From positions 8,928,001 through 8,992,000 of the forward strand of contig NC_088319.1 in assembly GCF_910592395.1 (NCBI RefSeq): 64,000 nt of DNA. The letters run 5' to 3'. The DNA comes from Lineus longissimus (Eukaryota > Nemertea > Pilidiophora > Heteronemertea > Lineidae). Each line of letters starts with the position of its first letter. Position 1 is the first letter of the stretch. The notes under the pieces were generated by a model. That model was given only the letters and a program-made list of their open reading frames with translations. It was not told where the DNA came from and searched no databases. Shown here in pieces: positions 5,154-64,000 of this stretch. A program made the translations under genes and the position numbers.

Positions 5154-5959
5154 CAGTAGAACCTCCCTCAGCGGACACCTCTGCCAGGCGGACACCTCTA
5201 CATTACGGACACGTCCGGCCAGTCCCGATTTTTTCTAAGTCATTTCCAATAACAAAAACCTCTGTACGGCGGACACCTCTCTATTCCGAATTGCGGACAG
5301 GGCGATAGCCAATTTTTGGTCCAATTCCCTCCCAATTACGGACAGTAGGCAAAAACAATGGCTTCCCGCGTGCGCTTGGAGAGTCGAGTAGGCCCGACAG
5401 GTGTGATATTTGCGTAATTAATCAACGTAATTACCCCATGGCATTGTGTTTTTGTATCCTAATTAAGCCGTGGCATTTGTTTACTCATCTTTTCAACTAA
5501 TCACATAGGCCTATTGCATGTATTGTGTCAACGGACACTCATAAATCCACGCGGTTTTGTCAGTGTTGCGGCGAATATGCGTTAGTAGAGAAATTAGAAA
5601 AAATTAATTATTAATCAAAGGTGGCTGATGGACAGAAATTATGGTGTTTTTTCACACATTATGACATGTCGGGGAGATTTTGCAATACAAGGGGCACCTT
5701 TTACTAGAGAGATTATTCACGCTCTGAGTTCCAAAGTAGCTCACGTCATTCAACGCAACATCACAAGCAAATACTGATCAGCCAACAGGTTTAAAGTTTC
5801 TACGCTAGATGTCGACACAGAGAAAACCAAGACCTGCAAGGCGGGAACTTCAAATTCACCTATGGGACGATTTGGCATAACCTCTCTATTGCGGACACCT
5901 CTCTATTGCGGACACCTTGGCCCAGTCCCATGGGTGTCCGCAATAGAGAGGTTGTACTG
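5154..5959. mobile_element. Non-autonomous pogo/Tigger-like MITE
   Basis: An 806-bp element bounded by TA on both sides (5152-5153 and 5960-5961). Its imperfect terminal inverted repeats are CAGTAGAACCTCCCTCAGCG at the left and CAGTACAACCTCTCTATTGC (reverse complement) at the right. Subterminal copies of GCGGACACCTCT recur at both ends (for example 5180-5210, 5270-5300 and 5885-5920). A TA target and CAGT ends are typical of Tc1/mariner-pogo elements. It has no transposase ORF, so it would need a transposase in trans. Confidence 0.8.
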
Positions 5960-6309
5960 TATAAGTAGGTCAAGGTTAAAAAAGCCCATTTTCTTTATTC
6001 CAGCAGATTGAAGTTTGAAATGAAGTTTTAGAGGTCGGCCTGATATAGAGGTTTCGATATTAAATAGATTAATTTCGTTTCGTATCACTAGGTGGCGGTA
6101 TTGTGCAAAAATGTCAGTTGGCACATTGCCAGCAGTTTCGAATTTCGTGGTTCGAGGCAATCCGTCGGGTATCCCAGATGCGCAGTGTTGTACTGCGCCA
6201 CTAGATCTGCATACTACAAGTATGGAAGACAGCCATTTTATGAATTTGAAGTGAGAGGAAGAAGGAATTAAATCACCTTGAATCAATGCTAAAACTTAAT
6301 CATCCGCTC

Positions 6310-57887: not shown

Positions 57888-58850
57888 ATGAGTGATAGAA
57901 ACCAAAAGGTTCACTGTCCTACTTGTGATAAATACGTTTCATACAGCAATATGGCAGCTCACAGGAAGACTAAGAGACATTTAGATAAACATATGAGTAA
58001 GTTAGGGGTACAAGTACAGCCTCCTCTTCCTCTTCCCTAAAGGTGTAGATAAGAAGCTTGCCTTTGAGACTGATGAGCTTGATGGCATAAAGGAAGTGGA
58101 AGGAATTGAAGTAGTAAAGGAGTTTGGTAAGCCTGTGGTTACTATTAAAGTTGATACTGGGAGAGAACCTAAACAGGTGTATGAATACAGAGATAACTTA
58201 GAGGAGGTCCTTTTTCAACTCCATGATTACCACCACAAAATAAGCATATCAGTGTTCACCCAGTTCAATCGACCTTTGGTCGCAGAGCAGAGCTTGAATC
58301 GGCCGCAGATCAGAGCTTGAATTGGCAAGGTGGCAATGTCACACACCCAATTCAGTCTCCAATGGGAAGCATAATTTCAAGTAATCAGGCAATCTATTCA
58401 GTAACCAACCAGCTTAACTACATTAACACACAGATTGAAGAGAGGTACTTTCAAGGATCTGGCTTGTCTCTTAACATAATAGAGTCCTGTGACATGACAA
58501 TATGTTCTTACAAGAGGTGCAAAGGTGGTCATTACATTAGATTACCAATTACAGTCATCGCATTAGATTTAACACTCAAGCTGTAATCAATGTAATGTCA
58601 CAGGAACAGGGAAATGATCAGAAGTGTTTGCTCTGGAGTCTACTGGCTGCTAGATATGTCAAGGAACATAAAATAGAACTTCAAGAAGATGCGGAGCTTA
58701 CTATTGAAATGTTAGAAAAGATGTATGAAAATAATATTAAGATAAATTCCTTTCCTGTTTGTACTCAAAAGGATATCCCTAAAATCGAGAGTGACAAAAA
58801 ATCTTAAGATCAATGTGTTCAAGTTACAGAATGAAGCTGCTAAAAACATA
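57888..58850 (+). pseudogene. Decayed C2H2-finger / Polinton-like polymerase-region fragment
   Basis: Starts MSDRNQKVHCPTCDKYVSYS and has one C2H2 zinc finger (C-x2-C-x12-H, followed by KTKRH). Three further pieces lie in three different frames. One holds KPVVTIKVDTGREPKQVYEY (58096-58320). One holds LNIIESCDMTICSYKRCKGG (58317-58586). One holds NDQKCLLWSLLAARYVKEHK and PVCTQKDIPKIESD (58595-58807). The last combination (KCLLW ... DIPKIE) reminds me of N-terminal regions of Polinton/Maverick-type B-family polymerases, but no polymerase motif is present. It ends where the tandem array begins (58857). The call is a resemblance only. Confidence 0.4.
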
Positions 58851-58940
58851 CGTGATGGCTCACCTCTGCTCTTGACTTCGTTTTGTTCCCGCATCGCCGC
58901 CACAGTTGCTAGCCAAAGAAAACGAGGCTGGGCCTGTCGG

Positions 58941-58971
58941 TGACGTCATCACAGACGGACCAATGACGTCA
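58941..58971. promoter_or_regulatory. Paired CRE-like sites with CCAAT (unit A)
   Basis: Two perfect TGACGTCA palindromes (58941-58948 and 58964-58971), the second preceded by CCAA. Present again in unit C (63582-63589 and 63605-63612). In unit B the first is intact (60916-60923) and the second mutated to TGACGTCT (60939-60946). CREB/ATF-type sites often occur in promoters of small RNA and housekeeping genes. Which gene they serve here is not shown. Confidence 0.6.
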
Positions 58972-59216
58972 CTAAGAGAATATCATCCCAGTTGACCGCA
59001 AGTTGTCTCTTCGGGAAATAATCTTAGGCCTATGAACAAACATTTAATAGTCGGTCTACGAACAAACTTTTAATACTCGCCAAGGCAAATCATTCTTCAG
59101 TGTGCGACTAAATTCTCTATTGGGCGGTGATGACGGTGGTTGTTGGGAGGGGGCAGCTTATCAGTTTATACCTTTGAGGTATGAGGTTGATTGGATTGGA
59201 GTCACTTTGGCATTAA

Positions 59217-59566
59217 CTACCCTGCGATGGCAGGGCTGCAAAAATGTCTATAGACTCTGTCGTGTTCACATGGTCACATCCTGTCTTCGTGTCTTCGGCG
59301 ACCCTTAAGATGGGTCCGGCCCAGGTGGAGTTGGTGAGTTGGCGCCGCACGATTGGAAAATATTAATAATCATTGTTGTAATTCGGTCAATAAACGTCGT
59401 TTTAACGAGTAATAAACGGACAAGACAAGTTAACGCAAAGCCGAGTTCGACATTATATTCTTCCAACGTGATAACGCGACAGACTCATTAGAGTGTTCCT
59501 CTCTACGGAAATCTTTAGTAAAAGGCGAAAAATGTATGCGTGGAATCGAAGAGAAACCAAAGTGAT
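59217..59566 (-). pseudogene. U5 snRNA copy A, split by a solo LTR
   Basis: Same sequence as the U5 genes of units B and C, with loop I (CGCCTTTTACTAAAG) preserved. A 224-bp LTR (59258-59481) is inserted between the stem (AATGAGTC) and the Sm site (ACATTTTTGC). A transcript could no longer present the Sm site and 3' stem at the right distance. The 5' end also carries changes (CCAAAGTGAT versus CCGGACTGAT in plus orientation). Confidence 0.85.
59258..59481. mobile_element. Solo LTR inserted in U5 copy A
   Basis: A 224-bp insert absent from units B and C. It starts TGTCG and ends CGACA, and is flanked by the 5-bp direct repeat GACTC (59253-59257 and 59482-59486). It contains two AATAAACG poly(A)-type words. 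TG...CA ends, an inverted TGTCG/CGACA pair and a 5-bp duplication are the signature of an LTR left by recombination. The parental family is not present in the window. Confidence 0.88.
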
Positions 59567-59960
59567 GTTGTCCAGCCCGAGTTGGCTAGAGCTTGCCAAG
59601 TTCTTCATGTGTTTGATTTTGGAAAATGGGATGCCGAGTAGTTCTTGAGTCTGTAGACAAAAGAAATGTATTGCAAAATATCTGTAATGATCTGATGAAC
59701 ATATCATTCAGCTCGTCGTCAGTTATCGCCAAATCCATGTAGGACATTCCAATTGTGGATCATCGAGAAAAAGTCAAGGAAATACAAAAAATGACCACGC
59801 TTACGTTATCTAGCCTTGACTTTGGATCACCAATATGGCAATTAATAGGCCTAATTAATAGACCTCACCGAGTGATTGTGAGAAGAGTAAAAAATCCAAA
59901 TCAACTCACTATATCACCATTAATTCATCGACCATCGGGTCAACTTGAAAATTACCAACC

Positions 59961-60245
59961 ATGAAAACCACGATTGACCAGAGATTGCGAGCGGTTGAGA
60001 GAAAGTTTAAAACATCGGTGCGAATAGTCGGCGTCCTCGATAGACAGATTGACAGACTCCAAGCCCGATACAAGAGAGCCTACAACAGCAAGACCAAGGC
60101 CGTGTTCAACAGCTTTCGTCTTCAACTTTCAACTCTAGAAGGTGTGCGTCAAGTGTTTTACCTCTATGCATGCGAAAGAGCCGCCGAGAAGAGTCGACTA
60201 GAAAAAGAAATGCAAGAGGAGCTTAGGAGCAAAACAGTAGAATGA
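59961..60245 (+). CDS. Small stem-loop-mRNA protein, plus-strand gene, unit A (94 aa)
   Basis: Starts MKTTIDQRLRAVERKFKTSV and ends ELRSKTVE. It is basic, almost wholly alpha-helical by composition and has no signal or membrane segment. The core FRLQLSTLEGVRQVFYLYAC is shared with the minus-strand paralog of unit B (RLQL-TLEGVR). The stop is 20 nt before a histone-type stem-loop. It differs from the unit B copy by I22Q and R28K plus one silent change. Its TATA box and octamer are mutated (TAAAAAA and ATCCAAAT at 59888-59901), so this copy may be poorly expressed although the frame is intact. I do not recognise the family; it is not a histone. Confidence 0.8.
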   Translation: MKTTIDQRLRAVERKFKTSVRIVGVLDRQIDRLQARYKRAYNSKTKAVFNSFRLQLSTLEGVRQVFYLYACERAAEKSRLEKEMQEELRSKTVE

Positions 60246-60265
60246 GTCTTTATAATAATTAAAAC

Positions 60266-60281
60266 GGTTCTTTTCAGAACC
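60266..60281 (+). promoter_or_regulatory. Histone-type mRNA 3' stem-loop (unit A, plus gene)
   Basis: GGTTCTTTTCAGAACC: a 6-bp stem with a 4-nt loop TTTC between GGTTCT and AGAACC, flanked by AAAAC and ACCAATC. Size, loop and 5' flank fit the replication-dependent histone stem-loop bound by SLBP. It lies 20 nt after the stop codon, and no poly(A) signal lies near. Confidence 0.9.
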
Positions 60282-60686
60282 AATCAAAATATAGTAAAAT
60301 GAGATAATTCTGTGCAATCAGTTTGCTTCGATGTTAAAAGAAGGGGCGAAAGTCTCCCTTGAAATAGTCCCTGGTCGGCAGGACTACAGTCACACTGTGG
60401 CTTTATTAAACCAGCCGTATCCGTATTTCAATTAAAATATTACACAAAAGTGCATGGGCTGTGAATAACAGCGTCCTGCATCCACCACTTCCTTGAGACT
60501 AATCCCCGACACGGCCGTTTCGGCGTGCTGTTCAAGAGACCGCTTCATTATGTATCTCTGAAATGCGAGGTCTGAGACAATTGTGCTTGGTGCGTGGTTG
60601 GACTGATCGTCTAGGCTTTTCGCAATTCAAATTTGGTGATCACAGCCATTCAAGTTCACGAGAACTTTCCATGGAACCTGGGGTTT

Positions 60687-60878
60687 TTATCGGGACAAAA
60701 AGATGCGCCGGCGCCAACAAATGCCCATTACTGAAGGGGGCGAAGAAGTTTGATACTGCGGCACCGGCTGTTGGGCCTGAGGGTATGTACCAGTAATTGC
60801 ATTCGCATAATGCAGGCCTAAAAGTGGAGAAGGCTCACCTCTGCTCTTGACTTCGTTTTGTTCCCGCATCGCCGCCAC
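60687..60878 (-). CDS. Possible small P/Q-rich ORF at the unit junction
   Basis: Open minus-strand frame preserved at the A/B and B/C junctions. It reads MREQNEVKSRGEPSPLLGLH (from the inner ATG at 60869), then TGTYPQAQQPVPQYQTSSPP. The CRE/CCAAT block lies just upstream, as for a promoter. It differs between copies by a few substitutions and is cut at the left edge of unit A (58857). No histone stem-loop follows. A potential donor (AGAGGTGAGC) lies after codon 10, so a spliced transcript leaving the unit is an alternative. Weakly supported. Confidence 0.3.
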   Translation of the reverse strand: MAAMREQNEVKSRGEPSPLLGLHYANAITGTYPQAQQPVPQYQTSSPPSVMGICWRRRIFLSR

Positions 60879-61192
60879 CGTTGCTCGCCAAAGAAAACAA
60901 GGCTGGGCCTGTTGGTGACGTCATCACAGACGGACCAATGACGTCTCTGAGTGAATATCATCGCAGTTGACCGCAAGTTGTCTCTTCGGGAAATAATCTT
61001 AGGCCTACGAACAAACCTTATTTAGTCGGTCTACGAACAAACTTTTAATACTCGCCAAGGCAAATCATTCTTCAGTGTGCGACTAAATTCTCTATTGGGC
61101 GGTGATGACGGTGGTGGTGGGGAGGGGGGCAGCTTATCAGTTTATACCTTTGAGGTATGAGGTTGGTTGGATTGGAGTCACTTTGGCATTAA

Positions 61193-61313
61193 CTATCCTG
61201 CGATGGCAGGGCTGCAAAAATGTCTATAGACTCATTAGAGTGTTCCTCTCTACAGAAATCTTTAGTAAAAGGCGAACAATTTATGCGTGGAATCGAAGAC
61301 AAACCGGACTGAT
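61193..61313 (-). ncRNA. U5 snRNA gene, unit B
   Basis: The minus strand reads GTCCGGTTTGTCTTCG, then CGCATAAATTGTTCGCC, then TTTTACTAAAGATTTCTGTA, then GAGAGGAACACTCTAATGAG. The universally conserved U5 loop I (CGCCTTTTACT) is intact. Its closing strand GAGAGGAAC, an Sm-type site (ACATTTTTGC) and a 3' hairpin CCTGC-CATC-GCAGG (61197-61210) follow. About 121 nt is the normal U5 size. U5 is the core snRNA of the U4/U6.U5 tri-snRNP that aligns exons in splicing. It sits upstream, in the same orientation, of the unit-junction block and downstream of the 5S gene. Confidence 0.92.
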
Positions 61314-61643
61314 GTTGTCCAACCCGAGTTGGCTAGAGCTTGCCAAGTTCTTCATTATGTGTTTGATTTTGGAAAATGGGATGCCGAGTAGTTCTTGAGT
61401 CTGTAGACAAAAGAAATGTATTGCAAAATATCTGTAATGATCTGATGAACATATCATTCAGCTCGTCGTCAGTTATCGCCTCATCCATGTAGGACATTCC
61501 AATTGCGGATCATCGAGAAAAAGTGAAGGAAATACAAAAAATGACCACGCTTACGTTATCAAGCCTTGACTTTTGACCTTTGGTCAGTTCCAGCCGTCCC
61601 AACCGTGCAGTGATATTGGAAGAATTATGAGAAAAAAATAACG

Positions 61644-61650
61644 AAAAAAA
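61644..61650 (-). terminator. Pol III T-run after 5S
   Basis: Seven Ts on the minus strand directly after the 5S 3' end, with a second T7 run a few bases further on (61632-61638): a normal RNA polymerase III stop. Confidence 0.85.
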
Positions 61651-61652
61651 TG

Positions 61653-61772
61653 AAAGTTACAACACGTGGTATACCGAGGTGGTCACCCATCCATGTACTA
61701 ACCACGCTCGACGTTGCTGGGCTTCGGTGATCGGACGAGAACCGGTGTTTTCAACATGATATGGTCGTAGTC
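61653..61772 (-). rRNA. 5S rRNA gene, unit B
   Basis: The minus strand reads GACTACGACCATATCATGTT, then GAAAACACCGGTTCTCGTCC, then GATCACCGAAGCCCAGCAAC, with GGATGGGTGACCACCTCGG and a GTTGTAACTTTC end. The internal control elements (AGCCCAGCAACG and GGATGGGTGACC) are present. The terminal helix still pairs (TACGAC with GTTGTA), although both strands differ from the usual bivalve or vertebrate text. Compensated change argues for function. It is absent from unit A. Confidence 0.93.
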
Positions 61773-61873
61773 ATCAGAGGCCGACTTTTTGGGCTAGTTA
61801 TAACAGTAGGCCAGCGACATAATTACAAACTGCATACATTTAATTTCTGTTGACATGTTATATTGTGACAGGT

Positions 61874-61912
61874 TGGTCTCTTTGGAAATATTTTGTGGTT
61901 CTGAAAAGAACC
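61874..61912 (-). promoter_or_regulatory. Histone-type 3' stem-loop and possible HDE (minus gene)
   Basis: On the minus strand GGTTCTTTTCAGAACC (61897-61912) is preceded by CCAAAC and followed about 14 nt later by CCAAAGAGACC (61874-61884), resembling the purine-rich U7-binding downstream element of histone pre-mRNAs. The loop starts 12 nt after the TAG stop (61924-61926). The 16-nt core is identical to the one of the plus-strand gene. Confidence 0.9.
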
Positions 61913-61923
61913 GTTTGGTGTAA

Positions 61924-62268
61924 CTAGCAATCACTGTCGTACTCATCGTCTTGAAGTAGAATCTCGTCGCCCAACAGCTCGCATCTCAACTCTGTCATCT
62001 TGTTTGCAGTGAGTTCGGCAAATTTGTAATATGCGGCCCTGACACCCTCAAGGGTTACAAGCTGGAGTCGCCTGTTGTAGCGCATCGAGCGGTGACCCTC
62101 CTCGTTAGCATGGTTGTACCGGAGTGTTATGTCTTGAAGCTTTCTGTCTATCATCACGATCTGGTCGCATGCCTCATAAAACTTTTCTTCAAGTTGGTGG
62201 AGTTGCGCTGACTTGGTTGAGTTTTCCATGTTTTCTTTGGTATCGGTTTGATATGTTCCGATGTTCAC
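61924..62268 (-). CDS. Small stem-loop-mRNA protein, minus-strand gene, unit B (114 or 101 aa)
   Basis: The first ATG gives MNIGTYQTDTKEN before a second Met. Starting at Met14 (62229) gives MENSTKSAQLHQLEEKF, which lines up end-to-end with MKTTIDQRLRAVERKF of the plus gene. The only TATA (62306-62312) leaves an extremely short leader for the first ATG. The body has QIVMIDRKLQDITLRYNHAN, then RLQLVTLEGVRAAYYKFAEL, then an acidic tail QDDEYDSDC that the paralog lacks. About 30 percent of aligned residues are shared with the plus-strand protein, densest at RLQLxTLEGVR. Predicted helical, soluble and mildly acidic. Divergent from the plus gene, like an H2A/H2B pair. Function unknown. Confidence 0.8.
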   Translation of the reverse strand: MNIGTYQTDTKENMENSTKSAQLHQLEEKFYEACDQIVMIDRKLQDITLRYNHANEEGHRSMRYNRRLQLVTLEGVRAAYYKFAELTANKMTELRCELLGDEILLQDDEYDSDC

Positions 62269-62620
62269 AGGTTGAATAGTGAACTGGGACGGGTTATCTC
62301 GTCCAATTTATACTTGTGCGGTCGCGTATCACCCGGCAACGTAATTGCCATGTCAACTCGAGTTGACATTACTCATTCAGCCGAACTTGATTGATACATC
62401 TCACCCGCCAAGCAATATCGCCTTGATTGTAATCAAATAATTGTGTAGGCCTGGGCTCAATGTATCTGAGGAGTGAGTTAAAATCGCCAATATGGCAATT
62501 AATAGGCCTAATTGGCACTTTTTCTCACCGAGTGATTGTGAGTAGAGTATAAAATGCAAATCAACTCACTATATCACCATTAATTCATCGACCATCGGGT
62601 CAACTTGAAAATTACCAACC
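62269..62620. promoter_or_regulatory. Divergent promoter between the two stem-loop genes
   Basis: 352 bp separate the start codons. For the minus gene: TATAAAT (62306-62312, complement) overlapping an ATTGG (CCAAT) box. For the plus gene: TATAAAA at 62548-62554 running directly into the octamer ATGCAAAT at 62554-62561, with ATTGG at about 62511 and the start codon at 62621. Octamer plus TATA is the classical H2B promoter arrangement. An inverted GTCAACTCGAGTTGAC palindrome lies at about 62353-62368. Confidence 0.75.
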
Positions 62621-62905
62621 ATGAAAACCACGATTGACCAGAGATTGCGAGCGGTTGAGAGAAAGTTTAAAACATCGGTGCGACAAGTCGGCGTCCTCGA
62701 TAAACAGATTGACAGACTCCAAGCCCGCTACAAGAGAGCCTACAACAGCAAGACCAAGGCCGTGTTCAACAGCTTTCGTCTTCAACTTTCAACTCTAGAA
62801 GGTGTGCGTCAAGTGTTTTACCTCTATGCATGCGAAAGAGCCGCCGAGAAGAGTCGACTAGAAAAAGAAATGCAAGAGGAGCTTAGGAGCAAAACAGTAG
62901 AATGA
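62621..62905 (+). CDS. Small stem-loop-mRNA protein, plus-strand gene, unit B (94 aa)
   Basis: Best-preserved copy: intact TATA/octamer promoter 60-73 nt upstream, intact 94-codon frame (MKTTIDQRLRAVERKFKTSV, then RQVGVLDKQIDRLQARYKRA), and a stem-loop 20 nt after the stop. Heptad-like spacing of hydrophobic residues suggests two long helices around the conserved RLQLSTLEGVR segment. Rich in Arg/Lys (basic), but without histone-fold or H1 motifs. The mRNA would be non-polyadenylated and S-phase-restricted if the stem-loop works as in histones. Possible roles (chromatin, cell-cycle or gamete-specific packaging) are speculation. Confidence 0.85.
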   Translation: MKTTIDQRLRAVERKFKTSVRQVGVLDKQIDRLQARYKRAYNSKTKAVFNSFRLQLSTLEGVRQVFYLYACERAAEKSRLEKEMQEELRSKTVE

Positions 62906-62925
62906 GTCTTTATAATAATTAAAAC

Positions 62926-62941
62926 GGTTCTTTTCAGAACC
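62926..62941 (+). promoter_or_regulatory. Histone-type mRNA 3' stem-loop (unit B, plus gene)
   Basis: Identical GGTTCTTTTCAGAACC with flanks AAAAC and ACCAATC, 20 nt after the stop at 62905. Downstream, ATGAGATAATTC could serve as a weak purine-rich element. Confidence 0.9.
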
Positions 62942-63228
62942 AATCAAAATACATGTATAGTAAAATGAGATAATTCTGTGCAATTAGTTTGCTTCGATGT
63001 TAAAAGAAGGGGCGAAAGTCTCCCTTGAAATAGTCCCTGATCGGCAGGACTACAGTCACACTGTGGCTTTATTAAACCAGCCGTATCCGTATTTCAATTA
63101 AAATATTACACAAAAGTGCATGGGCTGTGAATAACAACGTCCTGCATCCACCACTTCCTTGAGACTAATCCCCGACACGGCCGTTTCGGCGTGCTGTTCA
63201 AGAGACCGTTTTATTATGTATCTCTGAA

Positions 63229-63497
63229 ATGCGAGGTCTGAGACAATTGTGCTTGGTGCGTGGTTGGACTGATCGTCTAGGCTTTTCGCAATTCAAATTT
63301 GGTGATCACAGCCATTCAAGTTCACGAGAACTTTCCATGGAACCTGGGGTTTTTATCGGGACAAAAAGATGCACCGACGCCAACAAATGCCCATTACTGA
63401 AGGGGGCGAAGAAGTTTGATACTGCGGCACCGGCTGTTGGGCCTGAGGGTATGTACCAGTAATTGCACTCGCATAATGCAGGCCTAAAAGTGGAGAA
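63229..63497. other. Unit spacer (no supported gene)
   Basis: About 560 bp between the stem-loop and the next unit (62942-63497) is nearly identical to 60282-60831. A 77-codon frame (MRGLRQLCLVRGWTDRLGFS) is present in both but carries no domain, and a competing minus frame overlaps it, so I do not call a gene. It could hide a further small RNA that I do not recognise. Confidence 0.45.
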
Positions 63498-63858
63498 GGC
63501 TCACCTCTGCTCTTGACTTCGTTTTGTTCCCACATCGCCGCCACCGTTGCTCGCCAAAGAAAACGAGGCTGGGCCTGTTGGTGACGTCATCACATACGGA
63601 CCAATGACGTCACTAAGTGAATATCATCGCAGTTGACCGCAAGTTGTCTCTTCGGGAAATAATCTTAGGCCTACGAACAAACCTTATATAGTCGGTCTAC
63701 GAACAAACTTTTAATACTCGCCAAGGCAAATCATTCTTCAGTGTGCGACTAAATTCTCTATTGGGCGGTGATGACGGTGGTGGTGGGGAGGGGGGCAGCT
63801 TATCAGTTTATACCTTTGAGGTATGAGGTTGGTTGGGTTGGAGTCACTTTGGCATTAA

Positions 63859-63979
63859 CTACCCTGCGATGGCAGGACTGCAAAAATGTCTATAGACTCA
63901 TTAGAGTGTTCCTCTCTACAGAAATCTTTAGTAAAAGGCGAACAATTTATGCGTGGAATCGAAGACAAACCGGACTGAT
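63859..63979 (-). ncRNA. U5 snRNA gene, unit C
   Basis: Same as the unit B U5 across the gene, with loop I CGCCTTTTACT, the Sm-type site and the 3' hairpin (63863-63876). No LTR inserted. The 5' flank continues to the window end, so the 5S and protein genes of unit C would lie beyond. Confidence 0.9.
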
Positions 63980-64000
63980 GTTGTCCAACCCGAGTTGGCT

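What the first reader, a model, noticed from the sequence alone, without database searches (positions are those of the whole stretch)
58857..64000. Tandem array linking histone-style small genes to 5S rRNA and U5 snRNA
The sequence shows repeated units combining a Pol III 5S gene, a spliceosomal U5 gene and two protein genes whose mRNAs end in the histone stem-loop, with no core or linker histone in the complete unit. Histone/5S and snRNA/5S linkages are known in invertebrates. A unit in which non-histone proteins take the histone place is not something I know. This is the best candidate in the window for an undescribed system.
Basis: partly seen in the sequence, partly recalled or inferred. 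Interest (0 to 1): 0.93.

Follow-up and report, generated by a model that had tools for sequence, protein, structure and literature searches.

The report
Non-histone genes with histone-type RNA ends
This animal genome carries a large, so far unnamed family of small non-histone genes, in tandem arrays and scattered over many chromosomes, whose messages appear to end in the RNA hairpin thought to be reserved for histone genes, which would mean that a second set of proteins is made in step with DNA copying.

Summary
The window cuts into the first of two tandem arrays on one chromosome of a 391-Mb animal genome. Array 1 has 10 units (~2.67 kb), array 2 has 30 full-length B genes (~2.81-kb spacing). 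Complete units hold 5S, U5 and a divergent pair of intronless paralogues, B (101 aa, acidic) and A (94 aa, basic), each followed by a histone stem-loop. No histone was found in the window. Neither protein has a Pfam or PDB relative above chance. Both model as helical hairpins. Forty-five homologues exist, one named (clam Mya arenaria).

Key test: relatives in the same genome were found by protein similarity alone (24 places outside the arrays, 13 contigs). Of 12 then read, 11 carry the stem-loop just after the gene, most with an AAAGAGA-like element. Papers seen in passages call histone mRNAs the only ones of this type (PMC6303110, PMC2642717).

Most likely: a non-histone family using the histone mRNA 3'-end machinery, made in S phase. 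Processing, timing and protein function are inferred, not shown. The linked 5S and U5 are partly damaged.

The parts
58854..64000 (.). Left end of tandem array 1 (continues to about C12:9013152 outside the window): unit 1 58854-60828 (short, damaged), unit 2 60829-63494 (complete), unit 3 63495-64000 (cut by window end)
62621..62905 (+). Gene A (94 aa, pI 10.1), unit 2
   Evidence: homologues; AF2 hairpin pLDDT 93
62921..62966 (+). Histone-type 3' stem-loop after A, unit 2 (31.5 bits, under the Rfam cut-off of 34)
61924..62229 (-). Gene B (101 aa, pI 4.9), unit 2
   Evidence: homologues; AF2 hairpin pLDDT 89
61872..61917 (-). Histone-type 3' stem-loop plus downstream element CAAAGAGA after B (36.9 bits, over the Rfam cut-off)
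62230..62620 (.). Shared 391-bp divergent promoter region; TATAAAA at 62548-62554 (for A) and TATAAAT on the minus strand at 62306-62312 (for B)
   Evidence: read by eye
61654..61772 (-). 5S rRNA gene, array-1 type (85.6 bits; outer stem partly unpaired; T-run downstream)
61195..61312 (-). U5 snRNA gene, unit 2
63861..63978 (-). U5 snRNA gene, unit 3
59961..60245 (+). Gene A, unit 1 (98% identical protein; TATA box altered)
60261..60306 (+). Histone-type 3' stem-loop after A, unit 1 (33.0 bits, under the Rfam cut-off of 34)
59475..59565 (-). U5 gene of unit 1, its 3' part separated by the insert at 59258-59481
59258..59481 (.). 224-bp insert in U5 of unit 1, TG...CA ends, gactc on both sides (solo-LTR-like)
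   Evidence: alignment; reading

Best explanation
A and B belong to a non-histone gene family whose mRNAs end like replication-dependent histone mRNAs. Transcription starts at TATA promoters, in array units from a divergent A/B region. The pre-mRNA is cut after a stem-loop by the SLBP/U7 machinery, guided by an AAAGAGA-type downstream element, and gets no poly(A) tail. Protein output is therefore tied to S phase. High demand, as in cleaving embryos, would explain the 39 full-length B copies in two arrays kept uniform by concerted evolution, as for histones. The products are two-helix hairpins, one basic (A) and one acidic with an acidic tail (B). I think they most likely form A/B heteromers that act in the nucleus in amounts matched to newly made DNA, for example as a chromatin-associated or histone-handling factor. 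SHOWN by sequence: genes, stem-loops, downstream elements, paralogy, arrays, conservation. INFERRED: processing, S-phase timing, heteromers (about 0.5), nuclear or chromatin role (about 0.3). The 5S and U5 genes are linked passengers, as in other invertebrate arrays.
For: Stem-loops in the window: RF00032 after B and both A copies. In the sampled array loci (L031-L039, 90 kb) the exact core GGTTCTTTTCAGAACC lies within 90 nt of the stop in 10 of 10 array-1 and 15 of 16 array-2 A copies, and in 9 of 9 array-1 and 12 of 16 array-2 B copies; of the other 4 B copies 2 have one changed stem base and 2 are broken genes.
Test by protein only: 12 dispersed relatives; 11 of 12 have RF00032 at E 2.4e-5 or better just 3' of the gene, about 8 distinct sequences. 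Of 24 places outside the arrays (E <= 1e-3) 20 were read and 19 have the stem-loop; 8 of the 19 were reached through the stem-loop itself.
Downstream element: in 7 of 8 of those genes an AA(G/A)A(G/T)AGA-type element starts 12-14 nt after the stem.
Pair architecture recurs: divergent pairs with outward stem-loops on C17 and C1 (gaps 1002 and 550 bp). In the C1 pair the basic member groups with A (83/75), its partner on the B side (80/82).
Coding: A open in 10 of 10 array-1 and 12 of 16 sampled array-2 copies; B in 9 of 9 and 14 of 16. B between array consensuses: 1 synonymous, 0 amino-acid changes. 45 homologues; A and B separate clades (100/99 and 89/85).
Another genome: homologue P0006 ends in KRFFSEPQNV; KRFFSEPQ is the translation of AAACGGTTCTTTTCAGAACCACAA.
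A rows have pI 9.6-10.5, most B rows 4.7-6.8.
Against: No RNA or protein data: processing, lack of poly(A) and S-phase timing are not shown. The A stem-loops fall under Rfam's cut-off, as do 9 of the 11 dispersed ones, and the A downstream element is weak (AATGAGATAA). Histone-like stem-loops also occur in a dispersed repeat with no clear gene: 13, perhaps 14, of 28 sampled stem-loop sites, so a stem-loop alone is no proof of use. A between the two arrays shows 6 amino-acid and 4 synonymous changes (dN/dS about 0.4). One of 12 relatives (L069, C4) has no stem-loop in the 140 bp after its stop. Four of the 24 places were not read, all with in-frame stops; other copies have stops or broken frames too. 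The acidic/basic contrast is not clean in the dispersed pairs: the C1 partner has pI 7.9, the C17 pair 4.8 and 8.0, both on the B side of the tree. U7 snRNA and SLBP were never searched genome-wide. The chromatin role is a guess from charge, fold and supply logic.
Confidence: 0.74

Rival explanations
1. A and B are divergent histones or histone-fold proteins.
For: Size, basic charge of A, divergent pairing, stem-loop, 5S linkage.
Against: No histone among Pfam hits for the array genes or for six dispersed relatives, while a true H1 of the same genome scores 4.2e-19. Models have two long helices, 2-44/47-86 and 2-43/46-93. True histones sit elsewhere, on C6 and C1.
Confidence: 0.03
2. The stem-loops are inherited decoration: the family once captured a histone 3' end, spread by retroposition or tandem duplication, and now uses ordinary poly(A) signals or is largely non-functional.
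For: A dispersed repeat carrying a histone-type stem-loop exists in the same genome. Some family members are near-copies on several contigs (L072/L073, L074-L076) and some have stops.
Against: The stem-loop is kept in 11 of 12 relatives, and the downstream element at similar spacing, although the dispersed proteins are mostly 25-49% identical to B. The protein core is conserved among homologues. B shows no amino-acid change between array consensuses.
Confidence: 0.15
3. The array is primarily a 5S/U5 array and the protein genes are passengers without importance.
For: 5S is linked to histone or snRNA genes in several animals (PMC5011920 and PMC6204057, passages). The 16 array-2 5S copies sampled score 100-105 bits.
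Against: RNA genes are among the damaged parts: array-1 5S has outer-stem mismatches, the array-2 U5 consensus is split by an insert, unit-1 U5 by another. A and B mostly stay open, and the 12 dispersed stretches read show no 5S or U5 (only stem-loops and one sub-threshold snoRNA hit; stretches are only about 310 bp).
Confidence: 0.05
4. A/B are true S-phase genes but act outside chromatin, for example in cleavage-stage cytoplasm, cytoskeleton or membranes; the hairpin also resembles ESCRT-III, prefoldin and seryl-tRNA synthetase arms. (Shares the 3'-end part of the best explanation.)
Confidence: 0.3

Closest known systems
Replication-dependent histone gene clusters with 5S rRNA and snRNAs (Hydractinia echinata: H1, H2A, H2B, H3, H4 + 5S + U1 + U2 + tRNA-Arg; PMC5011920, passages seen)
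   Same: Tandem units, intronless genes, TATA boxes, stem-loop plus purine-rich downstream element, linked 5S and snRNA genes.
   Different: Protein genes are not histones; snRNA is U5; no core or linker histone found in the window's unit; the same genome has histones elsewhere (C6 cluster, H1 on C1).
Replication-dependent histone mRNA 3' processing (SLBP/U7); PMC6303110 (abstract and passages) and PMC2642717 (passages) call histone mRNAs the only known ones of this type
   Same: Six-base-pair stem, four-base loop, AAAGAGA-type element at similar spacing; the genome's own H2A and H1 genes share the element.
   Different: Clients are a non-histone family; processing not yet shown.
5S-snRNA and U2-U5 linkages (oyster 5S-U2, fish U2-U5; PMC6204057 and PMC3464664, passages)
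   Same: 5S or U5 inside tandem units with other multigene families.
   Different: Here with protein genes bearing histone 3' ends.
Mya arenaria hypothetical protein MAR_007846 (P0038)
   Same: Homologous protein, 43% identity to B.
   Different: No function or 3' end seen; lies outside the A and B clades.

Membership tests
Replication-dependent histone genes | Encodes a core or linker histone | tested here: not met
   No Pfam histone match; tblastn of the window with histone queries negative; hairpin models
Replication-dependent histone genes | 3' stem-loop | tested here: met
   RF00032 and core check; A copies and 9 of 11 dispersed genes score under the curated cut-off of 34 bits
Replication-dependent histone genes | Purine-rich downstream element 3' of the stem | tested here: met
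   clear for B and most dispersed genes, weak for A
Replication-dependent histone genes | Intronless short gene with TATA box | tested here: met
   single open frames covering the homologous protein; TATA read by eye; no transcript seen
Replication-dependent histone genes | mRNA not polyadenylated, S-phase restricted | not testable with these tools
   no RNA data
Invertebrate 5S/snRNA/histone composite arrays | Intact 5S and snRNA genes in the units | tested here: inconclusive
   9 array-1 5S copies, 8 at 85.6 bits and one at 91.0, window copy with outer-stem mismatches; 16 sampled array-2 5S at 100-105 bits; array-1 U5 in the window keeps its 3' hairpin, array-2 U5 consensus split by an insert
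ESCRT-III / prefoldin / Rad50 hairpins | Fold match well above background | tested here: inconclusive

The most novel reading that the evidence does not exclude
Animals have a second class of replication-dependent genes besides histones: an old, multi-copy family of helical-hairpin proteins, made through histone-type mRNA 3' ends in step with DNA synthesis, forming basic/acidic A/B heteromers that are a bulk component of newly replicated chromatin or of its assembly in embryos. It includes a member (L069) that has left the stem-loop, as replacement histone variants did.
Probability: 0.28. Interest if true: 0.97.

Novelty: categorically new. Interest (0 to 1): 0.9.

Why it matters
The rule that only histone mRNAs in animals end in this hairpin is part of how replication-dependent genes are defined, and research papers state it as fact (PMC6303110, PMC2642717; passages). 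A whole non-histone family with the same stem-loop and downstream element would break that rule, point to proteins that cells need in proportion to DNA, and give a direct test of what the SLBP/U7 pathway is for. Poly(A)-selected RNA-seq may have hidden such genes from annotation. The machinery is known; what would be new is the class of genes that uses it.

Tried and rejected
Divergent-histone reading: rejected (Pfam, model shape, true histones found elsewhere). Artefact reading: rejected (two arrays in a chromosome-scale assembly). Further RNA gene in the spacer 60310-60830: Rfam at E <= 1 gave none; the array-2 consensus lacks most of that stretch. Relatives in viral and prokaryote contigs: none confirmed (25 and 11 pattern matches). 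Stem-loop pattern in viral contigs: 0. PDB by sequence: best E 0.059 and 0.079, chance level. Pfam: best E 0.011; one dispersed relative (L042, minus gene) gave DUF1392 at E 0.0016, 19.1 bits, under its cut-off of 25. VIA-align: no row stands above the helical-hairpin background. Foldseek search never ran. A and B on the same metagenome contig: 7 A/B pairs share a source and longest-contig length (P0007/P0021, P0004/P0024, P0014/P0028, P0015/P0033, P0010/P0043, P0003/P0027, P0012/P0032); suggestive only, the contigs were not seen. Organism not identified. Genome-wide searches for core histones (76, 106), U5 (77, 107, 130, 135) and protein A (108) were asked and not answered; 5S, U7 and SLBP were never asked.

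Ascertainment: one search gave 74 stem-loop hits (75 of 64572 candidates scored, so a lower bound; among its 14 control genomes 1, Lactococcus lactis, rang, none over the cut-off). 40 of the 74 lie in the arrays. I read 28 of the other 34 (all 25 outside C6, 3 of 9 on C6): 8 family, 1 weak family (L049, E 0.0023), 1 B-type stem-loop without frame (L046), 4 histone or histone cluster (L048, L064, L066; L065 without identified gene), 13 dispersed repeat, 1 unclear (L060). Of the 12, L078 is a remnant of an array-type A gene and L068 is close to the C17 gene L042. Trees left out P0018, P0039, P0040 and P0043 and trimmed P0001 and P0016; the second tree used 20 of the 45 homologues. In one search three partial BLAST pieces (1 A, 2 B) were dropped before counting; the two B pieces are second halves of the two broken copies counted. 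Unit consensuses rest on 8 array-1 and 6 array-2 units.
Full report
WHAT IS THERE. The right end of the window (from 58854) is the start of a tandem array. The one complete unit, 60829-63494, holds U5 (-), 5S (-), gene B (-, 101 aa), a 391-bp divergent spacer with a TATA box on each side, and gene A (+, 94 aa), with a histone stem-loop after each protein gene. A and B are paralogues: about 30% identity, tblastn E 2e-8, shared core RLQL-TLEGVR. Unit 1 lacks 5S and B, and its U5 is interrupted by a 224-bp element. No histone was found in the window by tblastn.

IN THE GENOME. The window is C12:8928001-8992000 of a 391-Mb assembly in 30 contigs; C12 is 18 Mb. Array 1 runs to about 9013152 with 10 A and 9 B copies, all open. 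Array 2 lies at 9.367-9.483 Mb with 30 full-length B genes, spaced mostly 2801-2818 bp with a few longer or shorter gaps. Units differ by 0.5-0.7% within an array and 3.2% between array consensuses (8 and 6 units): concerted evolution. In the sampled 60 kb of array 2, 12 of 16 A and 14 of 16 B copies are open. The broken copies lie towards the ends of that array. The exact stem-loop core is present after 25 of 26 A copies and 21 of 25 B copies; two other B copies have one changed stem base and two are broken genes.

RNA GENES. Of 9 array-1 5S copies 8 score 85.6 bits and one 91.0; the window copy has mismatches in the outer stem. The 16 array-2 copies sampled score 100-105. Array-2 U5 genes have a good 5' domain, but in the consensus of 6 units a 712-bp element with 20-bp inverted ends (1 mismatch) and an ATA duplication separates the Sm site and 3' hairpin. 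So the linkage is real, while the function of these RNA genes is in part doubtful. U5 elsewhere in the genome was asked for but not answered.

PROTEINS. No Pfam family matches above chance (best E 0.011), and no PDB relative is found. AlphaFold2 gives two-helix hairpins for B (pLDDT 89) and A (93). A comparison of B with PDB structures shows only the usual helical-hairpin crowd. A is basic (pI 10.1), B acidic (4.9) with an acidic tail; the contrast holds in most homologues. The database has 45 homologues at E <= 1, nearly all on short contigs, one named (Mya arenaria hypothetical protein). A and B form separate clades. One homologue, P0006, runs on after the usual end into KRFFSEPQ, the translation of the stem-loop letters, so the stem-loop very probably sits at the same place in another genome; its DNA was not seen.

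THE TEST THAT MATTERS. A stem-loop in an array could be chance or hitch-hiking. Protein B was therefore compared with the whole genome; 109 of 109 candidates were scored and matched at E <= 1. Outside the two arrays 24 places reach E <= 1e-3, on 13 contigs, at 25-49% identity except the near-copy at C12:9100571. Twelve of the 16 not yet seen were read as stretches of about 310 bp; the 4 left out have in-frame stops. Eleven of 12 have RF00032 just after the gene, 28.8-37.5 bits, E 2.4e-5 or better; two reach the curated cut-off of 34. Most show an AAAGAGA-type element at similar spacing. L078 is an array-type A remnant, L068 is close to L042, and L072/L073 and L074-L076 are near-copies, so the independent count is about 8. 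The exception, L069, has a long acidic tail and no stem-loop in the 140 bp after its stop; by eye it resembles the P0034-type outgroup. Eight further family genes were found from the stem-loop side, one of them with an in-frame stop (L059). Among them are two divergent pairs with outward stem-loops. In the C1 pair the basic member (pI 10.0) groups with A (83/75) and its partner (pI 7.9, acidic tail) lies on the B side (80/82); in the C17 pair both members (pI 4.8 and 8.0) lie on the B side. Thus 19 of 20 places read have the stem-loop, 11 of them chosen without it.

RESULTS AGAINST. A dispersed repeat in this genome also carries a histone-type stem-loop (13, perhaps 14, of 28 sampled sites), showing that the element can travel. 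A evolves loosely between the arrays. Nine of the 11 dispersed stem-loops and those after A score under Rfam's cut-off. Four of the 24 dispersed places were not read. Several copies contain stops. There is no RNA evidence at all. These keep my confidence at about three in four for the 3'-end statement and far lower for a protein function.

WHAT IS KNOWN. 5S with histones and snRNAs is known; the closest is the Hydractinia cluster with 5S, U1, U2 and tRNA-Arg (PMC5011920, passages), with further linkages in PMC6204057 and PMC3464664 (passages). PMC6303110 (abstract and passages) calls replication-dependent histone mRNA the only known metazoan mRNA with a 3' stem-loop; [quoted passage not shown] Ten searches of the open-access library listed no paper on a non-histone family of this kind. 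I saw listings only, several of them cut (20 of 27, 20 of 36, 15 of 69, 15 of 24 and 15 of 2,024 papers), and most subscription journals are not held.

HOW IT WORKS, MOST LIKELY. Transcription from TATA promoters, cleavage after the stem-loop by the SLBP/U7 complex, non-polyadenylated S-phase mRNA, high output from tandem copies, and an A/B pair of hairpins needed in proportion to DNA. Steps up to the cis-elements are shown by sequence; the rest is inference from established histone mRNA biology.

On re-reading the calls I mended the array stem-loop count (new), the element length, the spacing of the downstream element, the charges of the dispersed pairs and the description of the papers.

Noticed in passing
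L043, L050-L055, L057, L058, L061-L063 (C1, C2, C3, C4, C7, C8, C9, C11): A dispersed repeat family carrying a histone-type stem-loop (AAGGCCTTTCTAAAGGCC and variants) plus AAAGAGA, close to the stem-loop of the C6 histone H2A genes, without a clear open gene; possibly a captured or retroposed histone 3' end.
   Followed up: partly
array 2 units, e.g. L036/L037 (C12:9434000-9453999): A 712-bp element with 20-bp inverted ends and an ATA duplication sits inside the U5 gene in the consensus of 6 array-2 units, apparently spread by concerted evolution; a solo-LTR-like insert hit almost the same U5 position in window unit 1 (59258-59481).
   Followed up: partly
L069 (C4:3624220-3624540): Family member with long acidic tail and no stem-loop in the 140 bp after its stop; candidate replication-independent variant.
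   Followed up: partly
C12 array 1 versus array 2: Two 5S types: 9 array-1 copies (8 at 85.6 bits, one 91.0), 16 sampled array-2 copies at 100-105 bits.
   Followed up: partly
window 58000-58850: Broken frames left of the array resemble a Polinton-like or adintovirus-like polymerase (recalled resemblance, no call).
   Followed up: no
L049 (C8:10118700-10119900): 226-aa frame with T/A/D-rich repeats and a weak family-like helical end (HMM E 0.0023), just under 100 bp before a histone stem-loop.
   Followed up: no
window 5884-5966: Two-strand match to microRNA family mir-4818 (36.4 and 30.9 bits, cut-off 92); likely a hairpin repeat.
   Followed up: no
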